The notes under the pieces: model-generated
What the model was told of the DNA's origin: nothing
The model's database searches: none
Seen by the model: the letters and a program-made list of their open reading frames with translations, nothing else
Translations under genes and position numbers: made by a program
Shown: piece by piece, positions 15,579-39,852 of the stretch
How the letters are laid out: each line of letters begins with the position of its first letter
Position numbering within the stretch: position 1 is the first letter of the stretch
Source of the DNA: Leptothermofonsia sichuanensis E412
GTDB lineage: Bacteria; Cyanobacteriota; Cyanobacteriia; Leptolyngbyales; Leptolyngbyaceae
Reading direction: 5' to 3'
Length of the DNA: 64,000 bases
Assembly (NCBI RefSeq): GCF_019891175.1
Contig: NZ_CP072600.1
Span: 558,001-622,000, forward strand

Positions 15579-16709
15579 TCAGGCGGCTGACAGGGACTGG
15601 GCGTCAACCACAGCCTGATAATAGTTTCTAAGCTGGTAGGTAGCTGCCGCCCAGCCCCATCGCTCAGCTTCGCGGCGGGCATTCCGGCGTAACGTTTCCC
15701 GCTCTTCTGGATTGGCAAACAGGCGCCGGGTGGCCGCGATCGCCCCATTCTCATCTGTTGGATCGAACAGAAAGCCATTGACGCCATCTTCCACGATATC
15801 AGGAATACCGCCAGAGCGGGCGGCAACCACGGGGCAACCGGCAGCCATGGCTTCGAGTAAGACTAAACCCAGGGTTTCCGTGCGGGAGGGAAAGACAAAG
15901 GCATCAGCAGAGGCGAAGGCAGAGGCCAGTTCCAGACCCTGTAAATAACCCACGAAATGGGTCGGCGTTCCAGCAAAGTGGGCCTCTAATGCCTGCCGGT
16001 GGGGACCATCCCCTACCAGTGCCAGCCTCGCATTTGGAATTGCCTGCATCACGGGCTTAATTCGTTCAATTTCTTTCTCTGCCGAAAGGCGTCCGACGTA
16101 CAGGAGCAGAGGACTTTCTGGATGTCCCTGGGTCAGCCGCGATCGCATCTCCCGACTTGCCAGATGGGGCTGAAAGGTTTCTGTATCCACACCCCGTTGC
16201 CACAGGTCCACCCGCTCAATTCCGCGCCCTGTCAGGGCTTCCATCATGGCCGTCGAAGTACAGAGATTGAGCGCTGCCTGGTTATGCCCGGCTTTCAGCA
16301 GTTCCCAGAGCAATCCTTCCAACATGCCCAGGCCATAATGCTGCAAATACTCAGGCAGATGGGTATGGTAGGAAGCCACCAGGGGAAGGTTGTGGAGTTT
16401 GCTATAAAATAACCCTGCCAGACCAAGGACAGCAGGGTTCACCACATGAATCAGATCAGGCTTGAAGCGTCGCAAGAAATCGCCGATCGAGGGACGGGGA
16501 AGCGCCAGCTTCAGTTCGGGGTAGAGAGGCAGCGGGAACCCGGACACTCCATAAATTTTGGCTCCCTTGTACTCCGTTAACCCACCATCAGGGGCGACCA
16601 CAACCACCTGATCTCCCATGCGCTGCAAATGGTCAACAGTGTGGCGCAGGCGAGTGACAATGCCATCCACTTTGGGCAAAAAGGTTTCAGTGAATAAGGC
16701 AATCCGCAT
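15579..16709 (-). CDS. sqdX: sulfoquinovosyltransferase (SQDG synthase)
   Basis: Transfers sulfoquinovose from UDP-sulfoquinovose to diacylglycerol, making the thylakoid sulfolipid SQDG. 376 residues from the ATG at 16709; the frame upstream to 16784 has a non-family sequence. It is a GT-B glycosyltransferase: N-terminal RIALFTETFLPKVDGIVTRL, middle SYHTHLPEYLQHYG, and C-terminal LLYVGRLSAEKEIE and the nucleotide-sugar motif PSRTETLGLVLLEAMAAG. These blocks, and the position directly downstream of sqdB, fit SqdX rather than a generic mannosyltransferase. The 181-bp gap to sqdB contains a MITE-like block. Confidence 0.9.
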   Translation of the reverse strand: MRIALFTETFLPKVDGIVTRLRHTVDHLQRMGDQVVVVAPDGGLTEYKGAKIYGVSGFPLPLYPELKLALPRPSIGDFLRRFKPDLIHVVNPAVLGLAGLFYSKLHNLPLVASYHTHLPEYLQHYGLGMLEGLLWELLKAGHNQAALNLCTSTAMMEALTGRGIERVDLWQRGVDTETFQPHLASREMRSRLTQGHPESPLLLYVGRLSAEKEIERIKPVMQAIPNARLALVGDGPHRQALEAHFAGTPTHFVGYLQGLELASAFASADAFVFPSRTETLGLVLLEAMAAGCPVVAARSGGIPDIVEDGVNGFLFDPTDENGAIAATRRLFANPEERETLRRNARREAERWGWAAATYQLRNYYQAVVDAQSLSAA

Positions 16710-25512: not shown

Positions 25513-27114
25513 ATGGGCATTGCAATCGATTTTGGTACCAGTAATACAGTGATTGCCCGCTGGAACCGGGCAACCCAACACCCGGAAACCCTCAGCTTAC
25601 CGGGCTTGACCTATAAATCAGGGCAGAATCCTCCCCTGATTCCCAGTCTGGTATATGTGGAAGATGCAACTAAAGGGCAGGTGGTCCTGGGACAGTCCGT
25701 CCGCGATCGCGCCCTTGACCTTGCCACTGATTCACGCTTTTTCCGCAACTTTAAGCGTGGTATCGGTGCTCCAGTCCAGGGATTTCTGCCAGAACTGGAT
25801 GGGCAGGTTGTCAGCTTTGAACAGGTAGGGCAATGGTTTCTGACCCAGATCATCCAGCAGTTGAAGGCGATCGCACCTGAGGCCGGGGAATCTCTTGTGT
25901 TTACCGTCCCGGTAGATAGCTTTGAAACCTATCGACTGTGGTTAGGGCGCGTATGCGAGTCCCTCCAGGTTGAGCAGGTACGAATGCTGGATGAACCAAC
26001 GGCTGCTGCCCTGGGATATGGGCTGACCAATCGGCAGACCCTGTTAGTGATTGATTTTGGCGGCGGCACTCTGGATCTGTCCCTGGTTCAACTGGATGTT
26101 GGGGCTGGCGGACAAACCAGACCCCTGGGCTTTATCCTCAAGTGGGGGCAAAAATCCTTTGCAGAGGAGTCGGGGCAGAAACCGAAAGTTGCCCGTGTAC
26201 TGGCAAAAGCCGGGCAAAATCTGGGTGGGTCAGATATTGACAACTGGCTGGCTGACTATTTTGGCTCAACTCAAGGGCTGCCAGTCACCCCCCTGACTAT
26301 TCGACTGGCAGAGCGGCTGAAAATTCAGCTTTCTTTGCAAACGCAGGCGCAGGAGGTGTACTTCAACGATGAAACCTTTGAGAGTTACGAACTCCAACTC
26401 AACCACGCCCAATTTGAGGACATCTTAAAGCAGCACCATTTCTTTGACCGGCTTGACGACTGTATGGCGCAGGTACTTCAGCAGGGTCGCAGGCAGGGTC
26501 TACAGATTGACGACATTGATGCCGTGCTACTGGTCGGTGGAACGGCACAAATTCCCGCCGTGCAACAGTGGGTGCAGCAGTACTTTCCGCCAGAAAAAGT
26601 TCGCTGTGAGCGGCCATTTGAAGCGATCGCCCAGGGTGCCTTGCAACTGAGCCAGGGGGTTGAGCTAAAAGACTTCCTGTACCACAGTTACGGCATTCGC
26701 TACTGGGATCGGCGGAATAACTGCCATAGCTGGCATCCTCTGATTCGGGCAGGGCAGGCATACCCCATGAACAATCCAGTTGAGTTGCTGCTGGGAGCTT
26801 CCCTGGATGATCAGCCCAGCATTGAATTGATTATTGGTGAATTGGGGGCAGAGGCAGAGCAGACAGAAGTATATTTTGATGGGGATCGTCTGGTGACCCG
26901 TCGCCTGGGTGCCGCCCAAACTCAAGTTCAACCCCTCAACGATCGGGAAGGTGCCCGCAGTATTGCTAAGCTTGACCCGCCCGGTCATCCGGGGAGCGAT
27001 CGGATTAAAGTCCTGTTCTGGGTAGACGACCAGCGTTTCCTGCGCATTACCGTAGAAGATTTGCTGGCCCTACGAACATTGCTGGAGAACCAACCAGTGG
27101 TGCAGTTAAGTTGA
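25513..27114 (+). CDS. Hsp70/DnaK-family protein, non-canonical
   Basis: 533 residues. The actin-like ATPase is clear: phosphate-1 AIDFGTSNTVIARWN, phosphate-2 LLVIDFGGGTLDLSLVQL, the adenosine motif VLLVGGTAQIPAVQQW and the linker-side LDEPTAAALGYGL. After about residue 375 the typical DnaK substrate domain and helical lid are replaced by a beta-rich segment of about 150 residues. That places it with the short Hsp70-like proteins of bacteria rather than with housekeeping DnaK. The client is unknown; the membrane protein directly upstream is a candidate partner. Confidence 0.85.
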   Translation: MGIAIDFGTSNTVIARWNRATQHPETLSLPGLTYKSGQNPPLIPSLVYVEDATKGQVVLGQSVRDRALDLATDSRFFRNFKRGIGAPVQGFLPELDGQVVSFEQVGQWFLTQIIQQLKAIAPEAGESLVFTVPVDSFETYRLWLGRVCESLQVEQVRMLDEPTAAALGYGLTNRQTLLVIDFGGGTLDLSLVQLDVGAGGQTRPLGFILKWGQKSFAEESGQKPKVARVLAKAGQNLGGSDIDNWLADYFGSTQGLPVTPLTIRLAERLKIQLSLQTQAQEVYFNDETFESYELQLNHAQFEDILKQHHFFDRLDDCMAQVLQQGRRQGLQIDDIDAVLLVGGTAQIPAVQQWVQQYFPPEKVRCERPFEAIAQGALQLSQGVELKDFLYHSYGIRYWDRRNNCHSWHPLIRAGQAYPMNNPVELLLGASLDDQPSIELIIGELGAEAEQTEVYFDGDRLVTRRLGAAQTQVQPLNDREGARSIAKLDPPGHPGSDRIKVLFWVDDQRFLRITVEDLLALRTLLENQPVVQLS

Positions 27115-27120
27115 TGAGAC

Positions 27121-27268
27121 GGAGGGGAAGAAGTGAGAAGTGAGGGGGAAGAAGTGAGAAGTGAGGGGGAAGAAGTGAGAAGTGAGGGGGAAGAAGTGAG
27201 AAGTGAGGGGGAAGAAGTGAGAAGTGAGGGGGAAGAAGTGAGAAGTGAGGGGGAAGAAGTGAGAAGTG
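27121..27268. repeat. 21-bp tandem repeat, about seven copies
   Basis: Unit AGGGGGAAGAAGTGAGAAGTG: one imperfect copy and six perfect ones beginning 6 bp after the Hsp70 stop codon. Because 21 is a multiple of three, both strands give open frames (EGEEVRS or PHFSLLP repeats), which are artefacts of the repeat. A related degenerate run (CACTTCTCACTTCTCACTCC) precedes the lipoprotein gene near 60320. Confidence 0.9.
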
Positions 27269-27297
27269 AGAAATTGTTGGTTGTGCCTGGAGTCTCC

Positions 27298-27329: not shown

Positions 27330-27455
27330 TAGCCTGATGAGTTACCGATCATTTTCAACGCTCAAGGCTAAAGCAAAAACAGCCGTCAATGCGGGTACGC
27401 AAACAGCTATTATTTGGATAGCCGATTTTGAAGACGAGTCGGAACCCTTACGCAC

Positions 27456-28304
27456 GTGGATTTAGAACAGATATTCAAGACTCCCAACCCTATTATTGGT
27501 GTGGTTCATCTGCTGCCTTTACCGACCTCAGCCTGCTGGGGAGGCAATTTGAAGGCAGTCATCGATCGCGCTGAGCAGGAAGCTACCGCCCTCGCTTCGG
27601 GCGGGGTCGATGGGATCATGGTGGAAAACTTTTTTGATGCGCCTTTTACAAAAGACCAGGTAGACCCGGCTGTCGTTAGCGCTATGACCCTTGTGGTCAA
27701 CCGCCTGATGAATATGGTGACGCTGCCGATTGGTATTAATGTACTGCGAAATGATGCTCGCAGTTCTCTGGCGATCGCCACCTGTACCCGGGCACAATTC
27801 ATTCGAGTTAACGTTTTGACCGGTGTAATGGCAACTGACCAGGGCCTGATCGAGGGGCGCGCCCATGAATTGCTACGTTATCGGCGCGAACTGGGCAGTC
27901 AGGTCCAGATTTTTGCCGATGTGCTGGTTAAACACGCTCGCCCACTTAGTTCCCCTAACCTGACAGTCGCCGTTCAGGACACCATTGAGCGTGGGCTGGC
28001 TGATGCGATTATCCTTTCTGGCTGGGCAACAGGCAGCCCACCCAGCCAGGAGGACCTGGAACTGGCCAGTGCGGCTGCCAATGGCACCCCTGTCTTGATT
28101 GGTAGTGGAGCAAACTGGGAAAATATTCACACCCTGATGCAGGCAGCCGATGGGGTGATTGTTTCCAGTTCTCTGAAACGGCACGGTCGCCGCGACCAAC
28201 CCATCGATCCCATTCGGGTCAGCCGATTTGTAGAAGCTACCCGCCGTAGCTGTGCTGCCAAGGTTGAACCTCAATCTGTTTCTTCCGTATCCGTACATTC
28301 CTGA
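27456..28304 (+). CDS. btpA: BtpA family photosystem I biogenesis protein
   Basis: 282 residues, GTG start. A TIM-barrel-like protein matching BtpA: N-terminal TPNPIIGVVHLLPLP, GGVDGIMVENFFDAPF, LPIGINVLRNDARSSLAIA, IRVNVLTGVMATDQGLIEG and DAIILSGWATGSPP. In Synechocystis, BtpA is an extrinsic thylakoid protein needed to stabilise photosystem I reaction-centre proteins. The thioredoxin-like gene begins 4 bp after its stop, so the two form an operon. Confidence 0.92.
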   Translation: MDLEQIFKTPNPIIGVVHLLPLPTSACWGGNLKAVIDRAEQEATALASGGVDGIMVENFFDAPFTKDQVDPAVVSAMTLVVNRLMNMVTLPIGINVLRNDARSSLAIATCTRAQFIRVNVLTGVMATDQGLIEGRAHELLRYRRELGSQVQIFADVLVKHARPLSSPNLTVAVQDTIERGLADAIILSGWATGSPPSQEDLELASAAANGTPVLIGSGANWENIHTLMQAADGVIVSSSLKRHGRRDQPIDPIRVSRFVEATRRSCAAKVEPQSVSSVSVHS

Positions 28305-28308
28305 ACCC

Positions 28309-28767
28309 ATGCCTATGCAAACCCGGTTTTCCTGGCTTCGTCCGGTTCATTGTGCAAGCCATATCTTTGCTCTGGCAGGTTTTCTGGCGATCGCCACCAC
28401 CCTTGCCATCAGAACAGCACCCGCCCGTACCGAATCGTCTCCACCTGCTGCCACCATCACCCAGGCAAACTCCAATATCAATGCGCTGGCAAAGCACCTG
28501 CAGGCGATCGGTGCCAAAATGTATGGTGCTTACTGGTGCCCCCATTGCCACCACCAGGTAGATCTGTTTGGGCAAGCAATCTTTGATCGGTACATCCAAT
28601 ACATTGAATGTGATCCCAGAGGCGAGAAAGCCAAACCTGACCTCTGTAAGATGGCCAGAATTCAGGCATATCCTACCTGGGAAATTAAAGGCAAGTTTTA
28701 TGTCGGTGTTCAATCCCTGGAAGAACTGGCAACATTATCTGAATTTAAGGGGACAAGAAAATTTTGA
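28309..28767 (+). CDS. membrane-anchored thioredoxin-like protein paired with BtpA
   Basis: 152 residues from the ATG at 28309, just after btpA. A hydrophobic segment at about 18-34 acts as signal or anchor, with a short linker and a thioredoxin-like domain whose active site is CPHC (Cys77/Cys80) in KMYGAYWCPHC. A further Cys pair (YIECDP, DLCKMA) and the cis-Pro loop AYPTWEI follow. It closely resembles the C-terminal domain of the VKOR fusion 225 bp downstream (GAKMY-AYWCPHC, PTWEI-GK-Y-G-QSL). That similarity and a likely lumenal location suggest a thiol oxidoreductase partner of VKOR. Confidence 0.85.
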   Translation: MPMQTRFSWLRPVHCASHIFALAGFLAIATTLAIRTAPARTESSPPAATITQANSNINALAKHLQAIGAKMYGAYWCPHCHHQVDLFGQAIFDRYIQYIECDPRGEKAKPDLCKMARIQAYPTWEIKGKFYVGVQSLEELATLSEFKGTRKF

Positions 28768-28992
28768 AGCTCAGAATGGGGAAAACTGAGTGTTGCGGCT
28801 TAAAAATTGCACATTCTAAAGCTGCGAGCCAGGTGTAGAGTTCAGAGTCCCCATCATCATATTTTTTGCCTCCCGACTCCTGCCTTCCGCTTCCACTCCC
28901 ACTACCCGATACCTGATGTCCAGCATAGGGCAAAATAGGAGCAGACACCTGTTATCTCCAGGAGAATTGCCGGTTTATTCGAGGATATCCCA

Positions 28993-29976
28993 ATGTCTAG
29001 TCTAGTCAACCGTCGCCGCACGACCCCCTGGATCCATCGCTGGTCTCGCCCACTCATTGGGGCGATCGCGATCCTGGGTGCCATCATCACGGCGTACCTC
29101 ACCTTCGCCAGACTGACCAATACAGATGCTGCCTGCCCTACGGAAGGGTGTTCCCAGGTTCTCGCCAGTTCCTATGCCACAGTTTTTGGGTTGCCGCTTT
29201 CCCTGTTTGGCTTCCTTGCCTATCTTGGCATGGCAACGTTTGCCCTGGGTCCACTGGCAATCAGCCCCGAAAAAAACAGGCAACTCCGCACAAACCTGGA
29301 TCAATGGACTTGGCTCCTGCTGTTCATCGGAGCAACCGCCATGACAGTCTTCAGCGGTTATCTGATGTACATCATGTTTTCCCAATTTGTTTCCCAGTTT
29401 GGAGCCGGGGGAATTTGTTACTTCTGCCTTGCCTCTGCCATTTTTGCCCTCAGTATGTTTGTCCTGACGCTAATTGGGCGTGCCTGGGATGACATTGGAC
29501 AGTTACTGTTCATCGGTGTCATTGTTGTCATGGTGACACTGGTTGGGACGCTGGCAGTCTATTCCGGCGACGGTAGCAATGGTGATCCGGCTGCCCAGAT
29601 CCGCTCAGGCAATGGACAGGTATTTTTCACAATCAAGAACACCTCTGGTCCGGCAGAAATTGAGCTGGTTCGCCATCTCAACCAGGTTGGGGCAAAAATG
29701 TATTCAGCCTACTGGTGCCCCCATTGCTATGAGCAAAAGGAACTGTTGGGTGTCCAGGCGGCCAGACAACTGAACTACATTGAATGTGCTCCGGACGGCA
29801 TCAATTCTCAGACGGCCCTGTGTCAGAAAATTATTCCTGAGGCTGAGAAACAAACGGGTCAGAAATTTGGGTTCCCTACCTGGGAAATCAATGGCAAATA
29901 TTATTCTGGAACCCAGTCCCTCCAGAAACTGGCTGATCTGTCAGGCTATAAGGGACCACGCAATTTCCAGAATTAG
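28993..29976 (+). CDS. VKOR-thioredoxin fusion (LTO1-like disulfide-forming protein)
   Basis: 327 residues. The first about 195 form the vitamin K epoxide reductase domain with four to five membrane helices. The loop cysteines are Cys48 and Cys53 (ACPTEGC) and the redox centre Cys142/Cys145 (GGICYFCLAS) next to the quinone site. Residues about 225-327 are a thioredoxin-like domain with Cys242/Cys245 (YWCPHC). In cyanobacteria and plants (LTO1) this fusion passes electrons from lumenal dithiols to quinone, oxidising cysteines of photosystem and other lumenal proteins. The position next to btpA fits a photosystem-assembly role. Confidence 0.93.
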   Translation: MSSLVNRRRTTPWIHRWSRPLIGAIAILGAIITAYLTFARLTNTDAACPTEGCSQVLASSYATVFGLPLSLFGFLAYLGMATFALGPLAISPEKNRQLRTNLDQWTWLLLFIGATAMTVFSGYLMYIMFSQFVSQFGAGGICYFCLASAIFALSMFVLTLIGRAWDDIGQLLFIGVIVVMVTLVGTLAVYSGDGSNGDPAAQIRSGNGQVFFTIKNTSGPAEIELVRHLNQVGAKMYSAYWCPHCYEQKELLGVQAARQLNYIECAPDGINSQTALCQKIIPEAEKQTGQKFGFPTWEINGKYYSGTQSLQKLADLSGYKGPRNFQN

Positions 29977-29995: not shown

Positions 29996-30274
29996 TCAGT
30001 CCACTCGCTCTAGCTGCCAGAGAATCTGGTTGCCTTCACGGCGAACCCGGGAAACAACCCAGTTGCGCCAGACCCAGTTATCCCCACGGCTGGTAACGGC
30101 ACTGGCGTTAACATCCATCAGATCAGCCAGTTCCGAACTGGTAATCAGATAGCCTTTGCTGGCTATCTCCTCGGCAATATTGAGGGTATCTATCAAATCC
30201 CGAAGTTGACCGACTCTGATTTCACGGGGCAGGTTGTCGAGCGCATCAGCCGAAGAAGGGGGGTGGAAGTCCAT
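29996..30274 (-). CDS. small conserved protein with winged-helix-like C-terminus
   Basis: 92 residues from the ATG at 30274 (the frame extends to 30397 without a plausible N-terminus). EIASKGYLITSSELADLMDVNASAVTSRGDNWVWRNW reads like a helix-turn-helix in which SSELADLMDVNASAV is the recognition pair, followed by VSRVRREGNQILWQLERV, a wing-like strand pair. A DNA-binding role is an inference; I cannot place it in a named family. It is convergent with the VKOR gene. Confidence 0.65.
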   Translation of the reverse strand: MDFHPPSSADALDNLPREIRVGQLRDLIDTLNIAEEIASKGYLITSSELADLMDVNASAVTSRGDNWVWRNWVVSRVRREGNQILWQLERVD

Positions 30275-30997
30275 AGACCAGATTCGGTGCGGTGTAGACT
30301 TCGATGTTAACTTGAGGACTGACCCAGGAGTGAAGCGTGAGCAGGCAAAGTTTTCAAATTGTGCCGGGGAAGGAGAATCTGGCAATCCTCCTCTCACCCA
30401 TCAGAACTGGACGTAGAGTGTATCTTCAGCCTGGAACAATTTCTTGAAAGGTTGAGTAACGGATCAGAAAATTTGGATTTCCTGACTTTTGGTATAGCAG
30501 GGGACAGGGAACAATCATGCAGAGCCTGGTTCTCCCCATAAGATAGCCTGGTTGTCCCCATAAGATAGAGGAACTGGCTCTCCGCAGGAATCGCGGAGAG
30601 CTGGATCCATATCTGTGCGATCGCCTCTCCTATGGTTACGATTAACTCGTTCCCATGCATCGCGGGTAGCATAGCGGGCCTGATCCCAGGCTAAACCTGC
30701 CCTCTTCCGACGAGTTTCATAAATGGAAAAACCTCATCACTAAAAAGAAGGAAGCTGAGTCTGGAAAAACCCTATCCCTGTAGGTAAGCCAACTGTGCTA
30801 CCCTGAAGAAGTTGTCAAAAACCGCACATCCAGGGTTTCGGGTGTCTGCAGGTAGCTGTTAGAGGTTCGTCGTTAGTTGATTAGAGTGCCAGAGCTAAAT
30901 CCTCAGTCCAGTTTCTAACAACCAACAACTAACAACTAAACACTAAACACTCCCAAAGATGCTCCTGGGTGGAGGATAAACCCGAAAGGAGAAAAAT
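30275..30997. other. 723-bp region upstream of rpsB
   Basis: No gene supported. Features seen: a 21-22 bp direct repeat (CTGGTTSTCCCCATAAGATAG, 30526-30568); a perfect 9-bp hairpin GCTCTCCGC / GCGGAGAGC at 30577-30601; and an AAC/CAA-rich simple stretch at about 30917-30950. The rpsB promoter and leader must lie here. AAAGGAG at about 30984-30990 is the rpsB Shine-Dalgarno. Confidence 0.5.
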
Positions 30998-38024: not shown

Positions 38025-38580
38025 AAACCCTAAGTAGGCCCCCAGAACAAAATGGGCAGCATCGACAAAGAAGACGGCTCTCTGACCTGCTTTTGCCTCT
38101 TGCAGTCGTGGGTCTAGTTTTTTTGACGAACTCCTCCTGCGCTTCTACATCAGCTTTGGCGGGCAACATCCCCACTCGCCGACAACGCATCCCCATCGAT
38201 TTGAGAAACACCCTCACTTGCTCCCGACTACGGACAATACCAGTCAGTTCTTCGATCTTGGCGCAAGCCTGCGCTAGGGTCTTTGGAGGATTTGCCCGGA
38301 AGTATGCTTCCAAAGTCTGTTGATGTTGTTTCAGTTCACTCTGGGGTCGATAAAAGGTCAATTCTTTGAGATTGCCGATCCCCCCAGTTTCATAATCTCG
38401 CAGATAGCTCAACAACGTTGGTTTTGTCACCCGAAGCAACCGGGTAATTTCCTGATGCGAGTATCCTTGACTTTTGAGATACAACGCTTCCATTTTTTGT
38501 TGCACACGCGGATGTGGATGGTGAAAGCGTTCGTAATGTAGTTGCTCAATCTCTTCGGCACTAAAGCTCAGTTGGATCAT
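38011..38580 (-). CDS. IS630-family transposase (second type), DNA-binding part
   Basis: 189 residues with an HTH (YSHQEITRLLRVTKPTLLSYL) and a second domain (KTLAQACAKIEELTGIVRSREQVRVFLKSMGMRCRR). The natural frame ends near the A7 run; the last about 35 residues (TRPTTARGKSRSESRLL) are out-of-frame read-through and not part of a functional enzyme. Confidence 0.8.
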   Translation of the reverse strand: MIQLSFSAEEIEQLHYERFHHPHPRVQQKMEALYLKSQGYSHQEITRLLRVTKPTLLSYLRDYETGGIGNLKELTFYRPQSELKQHQQTLEAYFRANPPKTLAQACAKIEELTGIVRSREQVRVFLKSMGMRCRRVGMLPAKADVEAQEEFVKKTRPTTARGKSRSESRLLCRCCPFCSGGLLRVFVVL

Positions 38581-38920
38581 TGGGAGGCACCGTGCTCAAC
38601 ACTCAACGGTCTACCTCATTTCTACTTTATCTAGAGGGTAAAATCTATACCCCGGCAAAGTATAGCTCAACAACGTTGGTTTTGTCACCCGAAGCAACCG
38701 GGTAATTTCCTGATGCGAGTATCCTTGACTTTTGAGATACAACGCTTCCATTTTTTGTTGCACACGCGGATGTGGATGGTGAAAGCGTTCGTAATGTAGT
38801 TGCTCAATCTCTTCGGCACTAAAGCTCAGTTGGATCATTGGGAGGCACCGTGCTCAACACTCAACGGTCTACCTCATTTCTACTTTATCTAGAGGGTAAA
38901 ATCTATACCCCGGCAAAGTA
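38405..38920. repeat. 258-bp tandem duplication of the IS transposase-start end
   Basis: 38405-38662 and 38663-38920 are direct repeats. Each runs from an internal TA (TAGCTCAACAACGTTGG) to the outer end (...CCCCGGCAAAG). The second unit includes a truncated transposase start at 38611-38838. Confidence 0.9.
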
Positions 38921-39852
38921 TAGCCAAAAACCGTAGTGCCAAAAACCTGACGAAAACCCGCCTTGAGTTTGTAGTCGTTCAGTCCTACCTGGTGGGCCAG
39001 GGTCAACAGTGAGGGGGGATGTTCCAGATTGCTGAGTAAAATCTCCCTGGCATGGTAAATTCGCTCAATATCCTGGGGCTTGAGCAGGCGATAGTGGTTA
39101 TTTATTTCTGGTTGATCGGTCATCTGTTCCAGTTTTAACGCAATCAGTTCAAGCGTCTTGCTCTCCAGATACAGGTAGCGAGTGATGCCCTGATAGCCAC
39201 AGTTCAATAGTTGACAGGCAGCCCTTTTCATAGCTGGTGTGAGATCGCCCAGATTTAAGTAGGGTTGCTCCAGGTTCCCCTGCAAAATTCTCTGCAATTC
39301 AGGGGGCAGATCTCGTTCATAATGGTCAGAAAAGCTTTGCAATAGCCAGGATTCCACCCAGACATTGACGATCCTGAACGGTTGATGGGGGACAAATTCC
39401 CAAGCGAGGTGAGTATCAGCACCCCCAAAGGCCAGGTAATTCTGTCCGGGTGTCCGTTCTAGCGTCAGGATGGGAGTAGACTGCTGCTTACAGCGAACCC
39501 GGGAGATCCCTGAAAGATAGAAGCAAAATCTGAATGACCGGGTCTGAACCAGATACTCTTCCAGAATCAGGTCTTCGTGGGGAGTATAGTCTTCAATGCT
39601 GATTTGCAGTCCTGCCCGCAATTGGGTTTCCTGAATCCACCCACTGATGAAGGAGCCGGGCATGGTTATCCAGGTTTCGGGTCCCTGAGCCTGCTGCGTG
39701 AATCCGTAGGTTTTCAGCGCTTTGTACCAGTCGTCGTCGATTTGCGGCAGGGTCAGTTTCATGGTGGTGAATGACAGTTGTGGTGAATGACAATTAGCAG
39801 GGATGCAATGTGGGGAGAGATTAAAATAAAAGGGTGATTTCAAACAAGCGCG

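What the first reader, a model, noticed from the sequence alone, without database searches (positions are those of the whole stretch)
27456..29976. BtpA, a lumenal thioredoxin-like protein and VKOR-Trx form a likely photosystem disulfide module
The thioredoxin-like gene starts 4 bp after btpA and is a close paralogue of the VKOR fusion's C-terminal domain. VKOR-Trx makes disulfides in the lumen and BtpA supports photosystem I accumulation. The tight arrangement suggests that an extra free thioredoxin carries oxidising equivalents to photosystem I assembly factors.
Basis: partly seen in the sequence, partly recalled or inferred. Interest (0 to 1): 0.55.

Follow-up and report, generated by a model that had tools for sequence, protein, structure and literature searches.

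The report
Free VKOR-type thioredoxin beside its oxidase
A cyanobacterium carries an exported stand-alone copy of the disulfide-making thioredoxin domain between its btpA and VKOR genes, probably one half of a paired oxidising and reducing thiol system and probably not a photosystem I device.

Summary
The three genes are real: btpA, a 152-aa exported thioredoxin-like (Trx) gene 4 bp behind it, then VKOR-Trx after a 225-bp gap. The order btpA-free Trx-VKOR recurs in 11 of 42 genomes of the order (7 genera) and in one other family. The btpA-VKOR pair is much wider (74 of 80 btpA loci, 7 with the free Trx between) and already published. BtpA is now read as a tetrapyrrole-synthesis (GluTR) factor, so the photosystem I reading is not supported. 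The free Trx is not a recent copy of its neighbour's domain (AU p 0.014). It keeps CPHC, the second cysteine pair and the VKOR-Trx fold. Most likely it is a soluble DsbA-like oxidant recharged by VKOR. Its relatives gave a new lead: in 12 genomes, 10 of them with the trio, another copy sits directly before a CcdA-like (DsbD_TM) gene. Those copies look like lipoproteins, some with TPR repeats, and none has CPHC. This suggests an oxidising and a reducing arm built from one Trx family. The association between the arms does not survive a tree-based test, and no activity was tested.

The parts
27456..28304 (+). btpA (GTG start), cytoplasmic-type protein without signal peptide; conserved neighbour of VKOR
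   Evidence: NF045918 equivalog E 2.2e-153, PF03437; VKOR downstream in 74 of 80 btpA loci
28309..28767 (+). free VKOR-type thioredoxin, 152 aa, exported
   Evidence: no Pfam/NCBIfam match at E 0.001; phmmer to PDB 3kp8 2.1e-24; Foldseek 3kp8 E 3.2e-10; orthologues
28309..28425 (+). likely signal peptide (residues 1-39, A-P-A before the presumed cut); no lipobox
   Evidence: read from the sequence and scripts; no dedicated signal-peptide predictor was available
28537..28548 (+). CPHC active site
   Evidence: sequence; first Cys kept in 40 of 40 free homologues, second in 39 of 40
28609..28647 (+). second cysteine pair (C101, C113)
   Evidence: kept in 40 of 40 free and 23 of 23 fused homologues
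28993..29976 (+). VKOR-Trx fusion (VKOR domain about 29053-29472, Trx domain about 29650-29973, CPHC 29716-29727)
   Evidence: PF07884 E 1e-30; aligns with SynVKOR 3kp9/4nv2 over residues 8-320; only VKOR match in the genome

Best explanation
The gene encodes a soluble, exported, DsbA-like disulfide carrier made of the same Trx domain that cyanobacterial VKOR carries at its C terminus. It is most likely recharged by the neighbouring VKOR, directly or through VKOR's own Trx domain, and hands disulfides to lumenal or periplasmic proteins that the membrane-tethered domain does not reach. It is probably the oxidising arm of a two-arm thiol system: other free copies of the same Trx family, as lipoproteins, form a gene pair with a CcdA-like electron importer (predicted reducing or isomerising arm), and 10 of 11 trio genomes of the order have both. 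BtpA is an old neighbour of VKOR on the cytoplasmic side and not a redox partner. Shown: genes, predicted fold, cysteines, export-type N terminus, gene order, separate ancestry, and the contrast in signal type and active site between the two contexts. Inferred: direction of electron flow, partners, lumen rather than periplasm, substrates.
For: VKOR-type Trx by sequence and predicted fold. Signal peptide without lipobox in the 13 VKOR-linked copies. CPHC in 10 of 13 VKOR-linked copies against 0 of 14 DsbD-linked ones. Position between btpA and VKOR in 11 of 42 order genomes and in G008 of another family. One VKOR in the genome. Local duplication rejected. DsbD-linked copies: lipobox-like end in 13 of 14, both importer cysteine motifs in 13 of 14. 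Trio and Trx-DsbD pair together in 10 of 11, against 2 of 31.
Against: No activity or redox state was measured. Free Trx copies away from VKOR are common (14 of 61 genomes with btpA have a short-frame copy elsewhere, two of these being fragments of 60 and 63 aa), so VKOR linkage is not obligatory. Two of 13 VKOR-linked copies have CPYC and one CPHS. The co-occurrence of the two arms has only 3 independent contrasts on a btpA tree and is not significant there. Trx and VKOR are 225 bp apart and no promoter or terminator signal above shuffles decides whether they are co-transcribed. 27 of 42 order genomes have neither trio nor pair at btpA.
Confidence: 0.55

Rival explanations
1. The free Trx is a reductase or isomerase (DsbC- or HCF164-like) kept reduced by CcdA, correcting or removing disulfides that VKOR makes, for example for cytochrome c maturation.
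For: Family members elsewhere are paired with DsbD_TM genes. In trio genomes G157, G161, G184 and G185 a DsbD_TM gene and a ResB gene stand convergent to the trio. Two trio copies have CPYC.
Against: The trio copy itself is next to VKOR, mostly has CPHC (the DsbA motif, recalled) and has no lipoprotein anchor. The convergent ccdA-ResB arrangement was not found in the window.
Confidence: 0.2
2. The free Trx is a dispensable extra copy whose place between btpA and VKOR is inherited passively from an old btpA-VKOR neighbourhood, without a special tie to VKOR.
For: Patchy distribution: 11 of 42 order genomes. Free copies also lie elsewhere. The Trx evolves faster than btpA (window against G170: 61% against 93% identity).
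Against: Purifying selection and conserved cysteines. Same position in 8 genera of two families.
Confidence: 0.18
3. One reading: a photosystem disulfide module in which the free Trx carries oxidising equivalents to photosystem I assembly factors, tied to BtpA.
For: Gene adjacency; earlier BtpA literature on photosystem I (titles seen in reference lists only); the plant photosystem I factor PSA2 was proposed to promote lumenal photosystem I disulfides (PMC11449065, passages).
Against: BtpA redefined as a GluTR stabiliser. LTO1 loss affects photosystem II and leaves photosystem I unchanged. btpA-VKOR linkage is far wider than the free Trx. BtpA lacks a signal peptide.
Confidence: 0.06

Closest known systems
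Trx domain of cyanobacterial VKOR (SynVKOR, PDB 3kp8/3kp9) and of plant LTO1
   Same: Fold, CPHC, second cysteine pair, lumen/periplasm side
   Different: Free-standing with its own signal peptide; separate lineage from the neighbouring fused domain
DsbA with VKOR or DsbB
   Same: Exported CPHC protein next to the membrane oxidase gene
   Different: The modelled domain spans about 95 residues with no large helical insertion; interaction with VKOR untested
CcdA with a Trx-like partner (ResA, CcmG, HCF164 type)
   Same: The second context: a membrane-anchored Trx and a DsbD_TM gene side by side
   Different: The Trx there is VKOR-type and in part joined to TPR repeats
btpA-VKOR-rimO-crhR neighbourhood of cyanobacteria (PMC8190605)
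   Same: btpA followed by VKOR; a RimO-like radical-SAM/TRAM gene divergent upstream in 74 of 80 btpA loci
   Different: The passages seen do not mention a free Trx; no RimO match in this window

Membership tests
VKOR-type Trx domain family | Fold of the SynVKOR Trx domain | tested here: met
   AlphaFold model, Foldseek best hit 3kp8, E 3.2e-10, 48% identity
VKOR-type Trx domain family | CxxC plus second conserved cysteine pair | tested here: met
VKOR-type Trx domain family | Fusion to a VKOR membrane domain (as in SynVKOR/LTO1) | tested here: not met
   No VKOR match in the 152-aa protein; it is free-standing. So it is a relative of the domain, not a VKOR-Trx enzyme
DsbA (as what it works like) | Exported protein with CPHC | tested here: met
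   (export inferred from sequence only)
DsbA (as what it works like) | DsbA-type helical insertion domain | tested here: not met
   Secondary structure of the model shows a short Trx fold; it is not filed as a DsbA
DsbA (as what it works like) | Oxidised by its membrane partner, oxidises substrates | not testable with these tools
   needs biochemistry
BtpA | NCBIfam equivalog above cut-off | tested here: met
   509.1 bits against 400
CcdA / DsbD_TM (gene paired with the other free Trx) | PF02683 over cut-off and two conserved membrane cysteines | tested here: met
   PC motifs both present in 13 of 14, the other cut by a contig end
Photosystem I disulfide module | Effect on photosystem I assembly or thiol substrates in it | not testable with these tools
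   literature passages point away from it

The most novel reading that the evidence does not exclude
Filamentous cyanobacteria of this family have released the Trx domain of VKOR-Trx and split it into two dedicated arms: a soluble CPHC oxidant at the btpA-VKOR locus, and lipoprotein (in part TPR-carrying) CPYC/CSxC/CGYC/CTYC Trx each coupled to its own CcdA-like importer. That would be a complete Dsb-like oxidation and reduction/isomerisation system built from one VKOR-type Trx family.
Probability: 0.35. Interest if true: 0.62.

Novelty: new variant of a known kind. Interest (0 to 1): 0.42.

Why it matters
Cyanobacteria are known for one fused VKOR-Trx enzyme that makes disulfides. A free carrier next to it, together with related copies beside electron importers, would show how a one-enzyme oxidising system grows into an oxidation and isomerisation pair, and gives testable candidates for how lumenal and periplasmic disulfides are made and corrected. 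It also removes a misleading reading, the photosystem I module based on BtpA adjacency.

Tried and rejected
Photosystem I module: rejected on BtpA's revised role and on the general btpA-VKOR synteny.

Recent local duplication of the VKOR Trx domain: rejected by the AU test for the window and its sister G170 (p 0.014); the rows were chosen after the tree was seen. In G118 the free copy (CPHS) is sister to its own fused domain, a true local duplicate. One origin of all free Trx is neither shown nor rejected (p 0.21; deep forks open with 98 columns).

Small ORF 27337-27465 overlapping the btpA start: clear similarity only in the sister genome, no conserved upstream ORF among the 46 loci listed.

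Idea that the roughly 9-residue insertion in the fused Trx domain marks genomes with the free Trx: rejected. It is in 17 VKOR proteins, all of the window's family; 8 of these 17 genomes have no trio, and trio genomes G173 and G060 lack it.

Promoter and terminator scan: no more sites than in shuffles. Thiol control of BtpA: Cys110 is kept in 75 of 80, but the protein has no export signal; not pursued. Lumen or periplasm: the h-region rule of PMC12341915 (passages) was not applied, for lack of calibrated controls in this genome.

Statistics: the co-occurrence of the two arms (Fisher 4.7e-7; genus level 0.006) ignores ancestry; the tree-based test has 3 contrasts and is not significant. The lipobox (7.5e-7) and motif (6e-6) contrasts are likewise uncorrected. 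The lipobox pattern was looser than that (strict: 6 of 9 DsbD-linked, 0 of 13 VKOR-linked, 3 of 18 others). With the looser pattern 1 of 13 VKOR-linked frames matches (L069), upstream of the hydrophobic stretch and of the presumed start, so not as a lipoprotein signal.

Full report
WHAT IS THERE. btpA (27456-28304, GTG start), a 152-aa thioredoxin-like ORF (28309-28767) and VKOR-Trx (28993-29976) lie on the + strand. The gaps are 4 bp and 225 bp. BtpA passes the NCBIfam equivalog. The VKOR gene matches PF07884 and aligns with SynVKOR over residues 8-320. The small ORF has no Pfam or NCBIfam match at E 0.001 but matches the Trx domain of SynVKOR (3kp8) at 2.1e-24. An AlphaFold model from 23 aligned sequences (pLDDT 97-98 by blocks over residues 61-140) finds 3kp8 first (E 3.2e-10, 48% identity), then the full SynVKOR entries, then ordinary thioredoxins and glutaredoxins at E above 0.001. 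CPHC and a second cysteine pair are present; in 40 free homologues (two of them identical over the domain) all four cysteines are kept except for one CPHS. The first 39 residues read as a cleavable signal peptide without lipobox; no dedicated predictor was available. Orthologues in G184 and G185 show dN 0.10 and dS 0.89.

HOW FAR THE ARRANGEMENT REACHES. Of 80 btpA loci from genome contigs (the best 80 of 385, rich in Nostocales), 67 have VKOR downstream without a free Trx between, 7 have btpA-free Trx-VKOR, 5 have no VKOR within 3 kb and 1 is too short to judge. In the phylum sample (146 genomes, 67 with a Trx match, 61 of these with btpA) a long-frame Trx, taken as VKOR-Trx, lies within 3 kb downstream of btpA in 45 of 61, and a free Trx in 4: between the two in G000, G060 and G008, and behind VKOR in G118. 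'Fused' was judged there by an open frame of 290 aa or more; a VKOR profile search over 80 of these and the order's genomes showed that a few long frames away from btpA are not VKOR. Within the order (42 genomes, 19 genera) the trio is in 11 genomes of 7 genera, the pair alone in 4, neither in 27.

THE btpA-VKOR PAIR IS KNOWN. PMC8190605 (passages) reports VKOR and btpA upstream of rimO-crhR in 62.71% of strains (185 CrhR-encoding strains studied). A RimO-like radical-SAM/TRAM gene is divergent upstream of btpA in 74 of the 80 loci but has no match in this window. The passages seen do not speak of a free Trx. Ten literature searches listed no paper whose title or abstract start describes the free Trx or a Trx-importer pair of this kind; the library lacks most subscription journals.

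WHY NOT PHOTOSYSTEM I. The review PMC11449065 (passages) states that BtpA's function was redefined: without it both photosystems are nearly undetectable, it interacts with and stabilises GluTR, and raising GluTR amount or stability restores photoautotrophy (citing Skotnicova et al. 2024, not held). Two primary BtpA papers, one of them on localisation, were not held either; that BtpA sits on the cytoplasmic face is recalled, and fits the missing signal peptide. In Arabidopsis the VKOR-Trx homologue LTO1 is needed for photosystem II accumulation, with no change in photosystem I (PMC3842002, passages).

ANCESTRY OF THE FREE Trx. In a tree of 66 domains, 18 of 19 free domains fall on one side together with 1 fused one, and 46 of 47 fused ones on the other together with 1 free one (91/87 support; 99 columns). 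Holding the window's and its sister's free and fused domains together is rejected (p 0.014); all free ones as one clade is not rejected (p 0.21). With more divergent free copies added (63 rows) the deep forks are open; the window copy groups with G170 and G060, six other trio copies group among themselves with weak support, and G118's free copy is a true local duplicate.

THE SECOND CONTEXT. Following the relatives led outside the window. In this genome another VKOR-type Trx (C1:3006973) stands 2 bp before a DsbD_TM gene. In 58 genomes searched for DsbD_TM (42 of the order, 16 others chosen because they have free or extra Trx matches), 14 of 57 non-VKOR Trx matches, in 12 genomes, all of the window's family, have such a gene directly downstream. 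These 14 differ from the 13 VKOR-linked free Trx in two ways. A lipobox-like signal end is seen in 13 of 14 under a loose pattern; the 14th is this genome's copy, whose lipoprotein-type signal and TPR-Trx lie in different frames, while G170 (L183) has them in one frame. The VKOR-linked ones show none at the signal end. And none of the 14 has CPHC (CPYC 7, CSVC 3, CSSC, CSAC, CGYC, CTYC one each), against CPHC in 10, CPYC in 2 and CPHS in 1 of the 13. Four of the 14 have long frames with TPR-like repeats; Pfam confirms TPR in the one tested, L183. The DsbD_TM proteins keep both PC motifs in 13 of 14; the other is cut by a contig end. One of them has CcdA 5vkv as its only match among solved structures, and this genome holds a second, higher-scoring DsbD_TM gene elsewhere. 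Trio genomes carry such a pair in 10 of 11, other genomes of the order in 2 of 31 (Fisher 4.7e-7; by genus 6 of 7 against 2 of 12, p 0.006). On a btpA tree only 3 independent contrasts exist on supported branches and the test cannot reach significance, so shared ancestry may explain the co-occurrence.

MECHANISM. The simplest reading is that VKOR oxidises its own Trx domain and the free copy, and that the free copy carries disulfides to targets out of reach of the tethered domain, while the lipoprotein copies are kept reduced by their importers and act as reductases or isomerases. That CPHC is the DsbA motif, and that CGYC and CPYC are found in DsbC- and glutaredoxin-type proteins, is recalled. 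In trio genomes G157, G161, G184 and G185 (L163, L166, L168, L169) a DsbD_TM gene and a ResB gene stand convergent to the trio, which fits a thiol-redox neighbourhood but was not found in the window. Compartment, substrates and direction of electron flow are not shown by anything here.

VERDICT. It is a new variant of a known kind; the two-context split of VKOR-type Trx is the most interesting and least certain part.

Noticed in passing
G000:C1 about 3006500-3008300 (L159 3996-5792), outside the window: TPR-Trx protein 2 bp before a DsbD_TM gene; its lipoprotein-type signal and the TPR-Trx part lie in different reading frames here, in one frame in the sister genome G170 (L183)..
   Followed up: partly
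window 27124-27270: Seven perfect copies of a 21-bp unit just upstream of btpA.
   Followed up: no
window 38404-38931: 2.1 tandem copies of a 258-bp unit, 99% matches.
   Followed up: no
window 29996-30397 (-): Free-standing C-terminal part of a longer RNase HI-type protein; the RNase H part has no match in the window.
   Followed up: partly
window 15952-16039 (+): ARAGORN calls a tRNA-Pyl (cta), but Rfam finds nothing at gathering score in the window; probably a false call.
   Followed up: partly
btpA starts in L033-L078: The inferred btpA start codon is GTG in all 46 loci listed.
   Followed up: no
window 29716-29973 (Trx domain of VKOR-Trx): A roughly 9-residue insertion before the P-T-W loop (17 residues after the last cysteine instead of 8) in 17 VKOR proteins of this family; free copies have 8, except two lipoprotein copies (L172, L173) with 13.
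   Followed up: partly
L171 3579-4061 (G118): Free Trx behind VKOR with CPHS instead of CPHC, sister to the fused domain of the same genome.
   Followed up: no
L141, L142, L145: In another family (f11) the free Trx directly follows a gene that in L142 is a SLOG (LDcluster4) protein; a UbiA-type prenyltransferase is near in L141.
   Followed up: no
window 25513-27114 (+): Hsp70-like protein (PF00012) upstream of btpA, where a RimO-like gene stands in 74 of 80 btpA loci.
   Followed up: no
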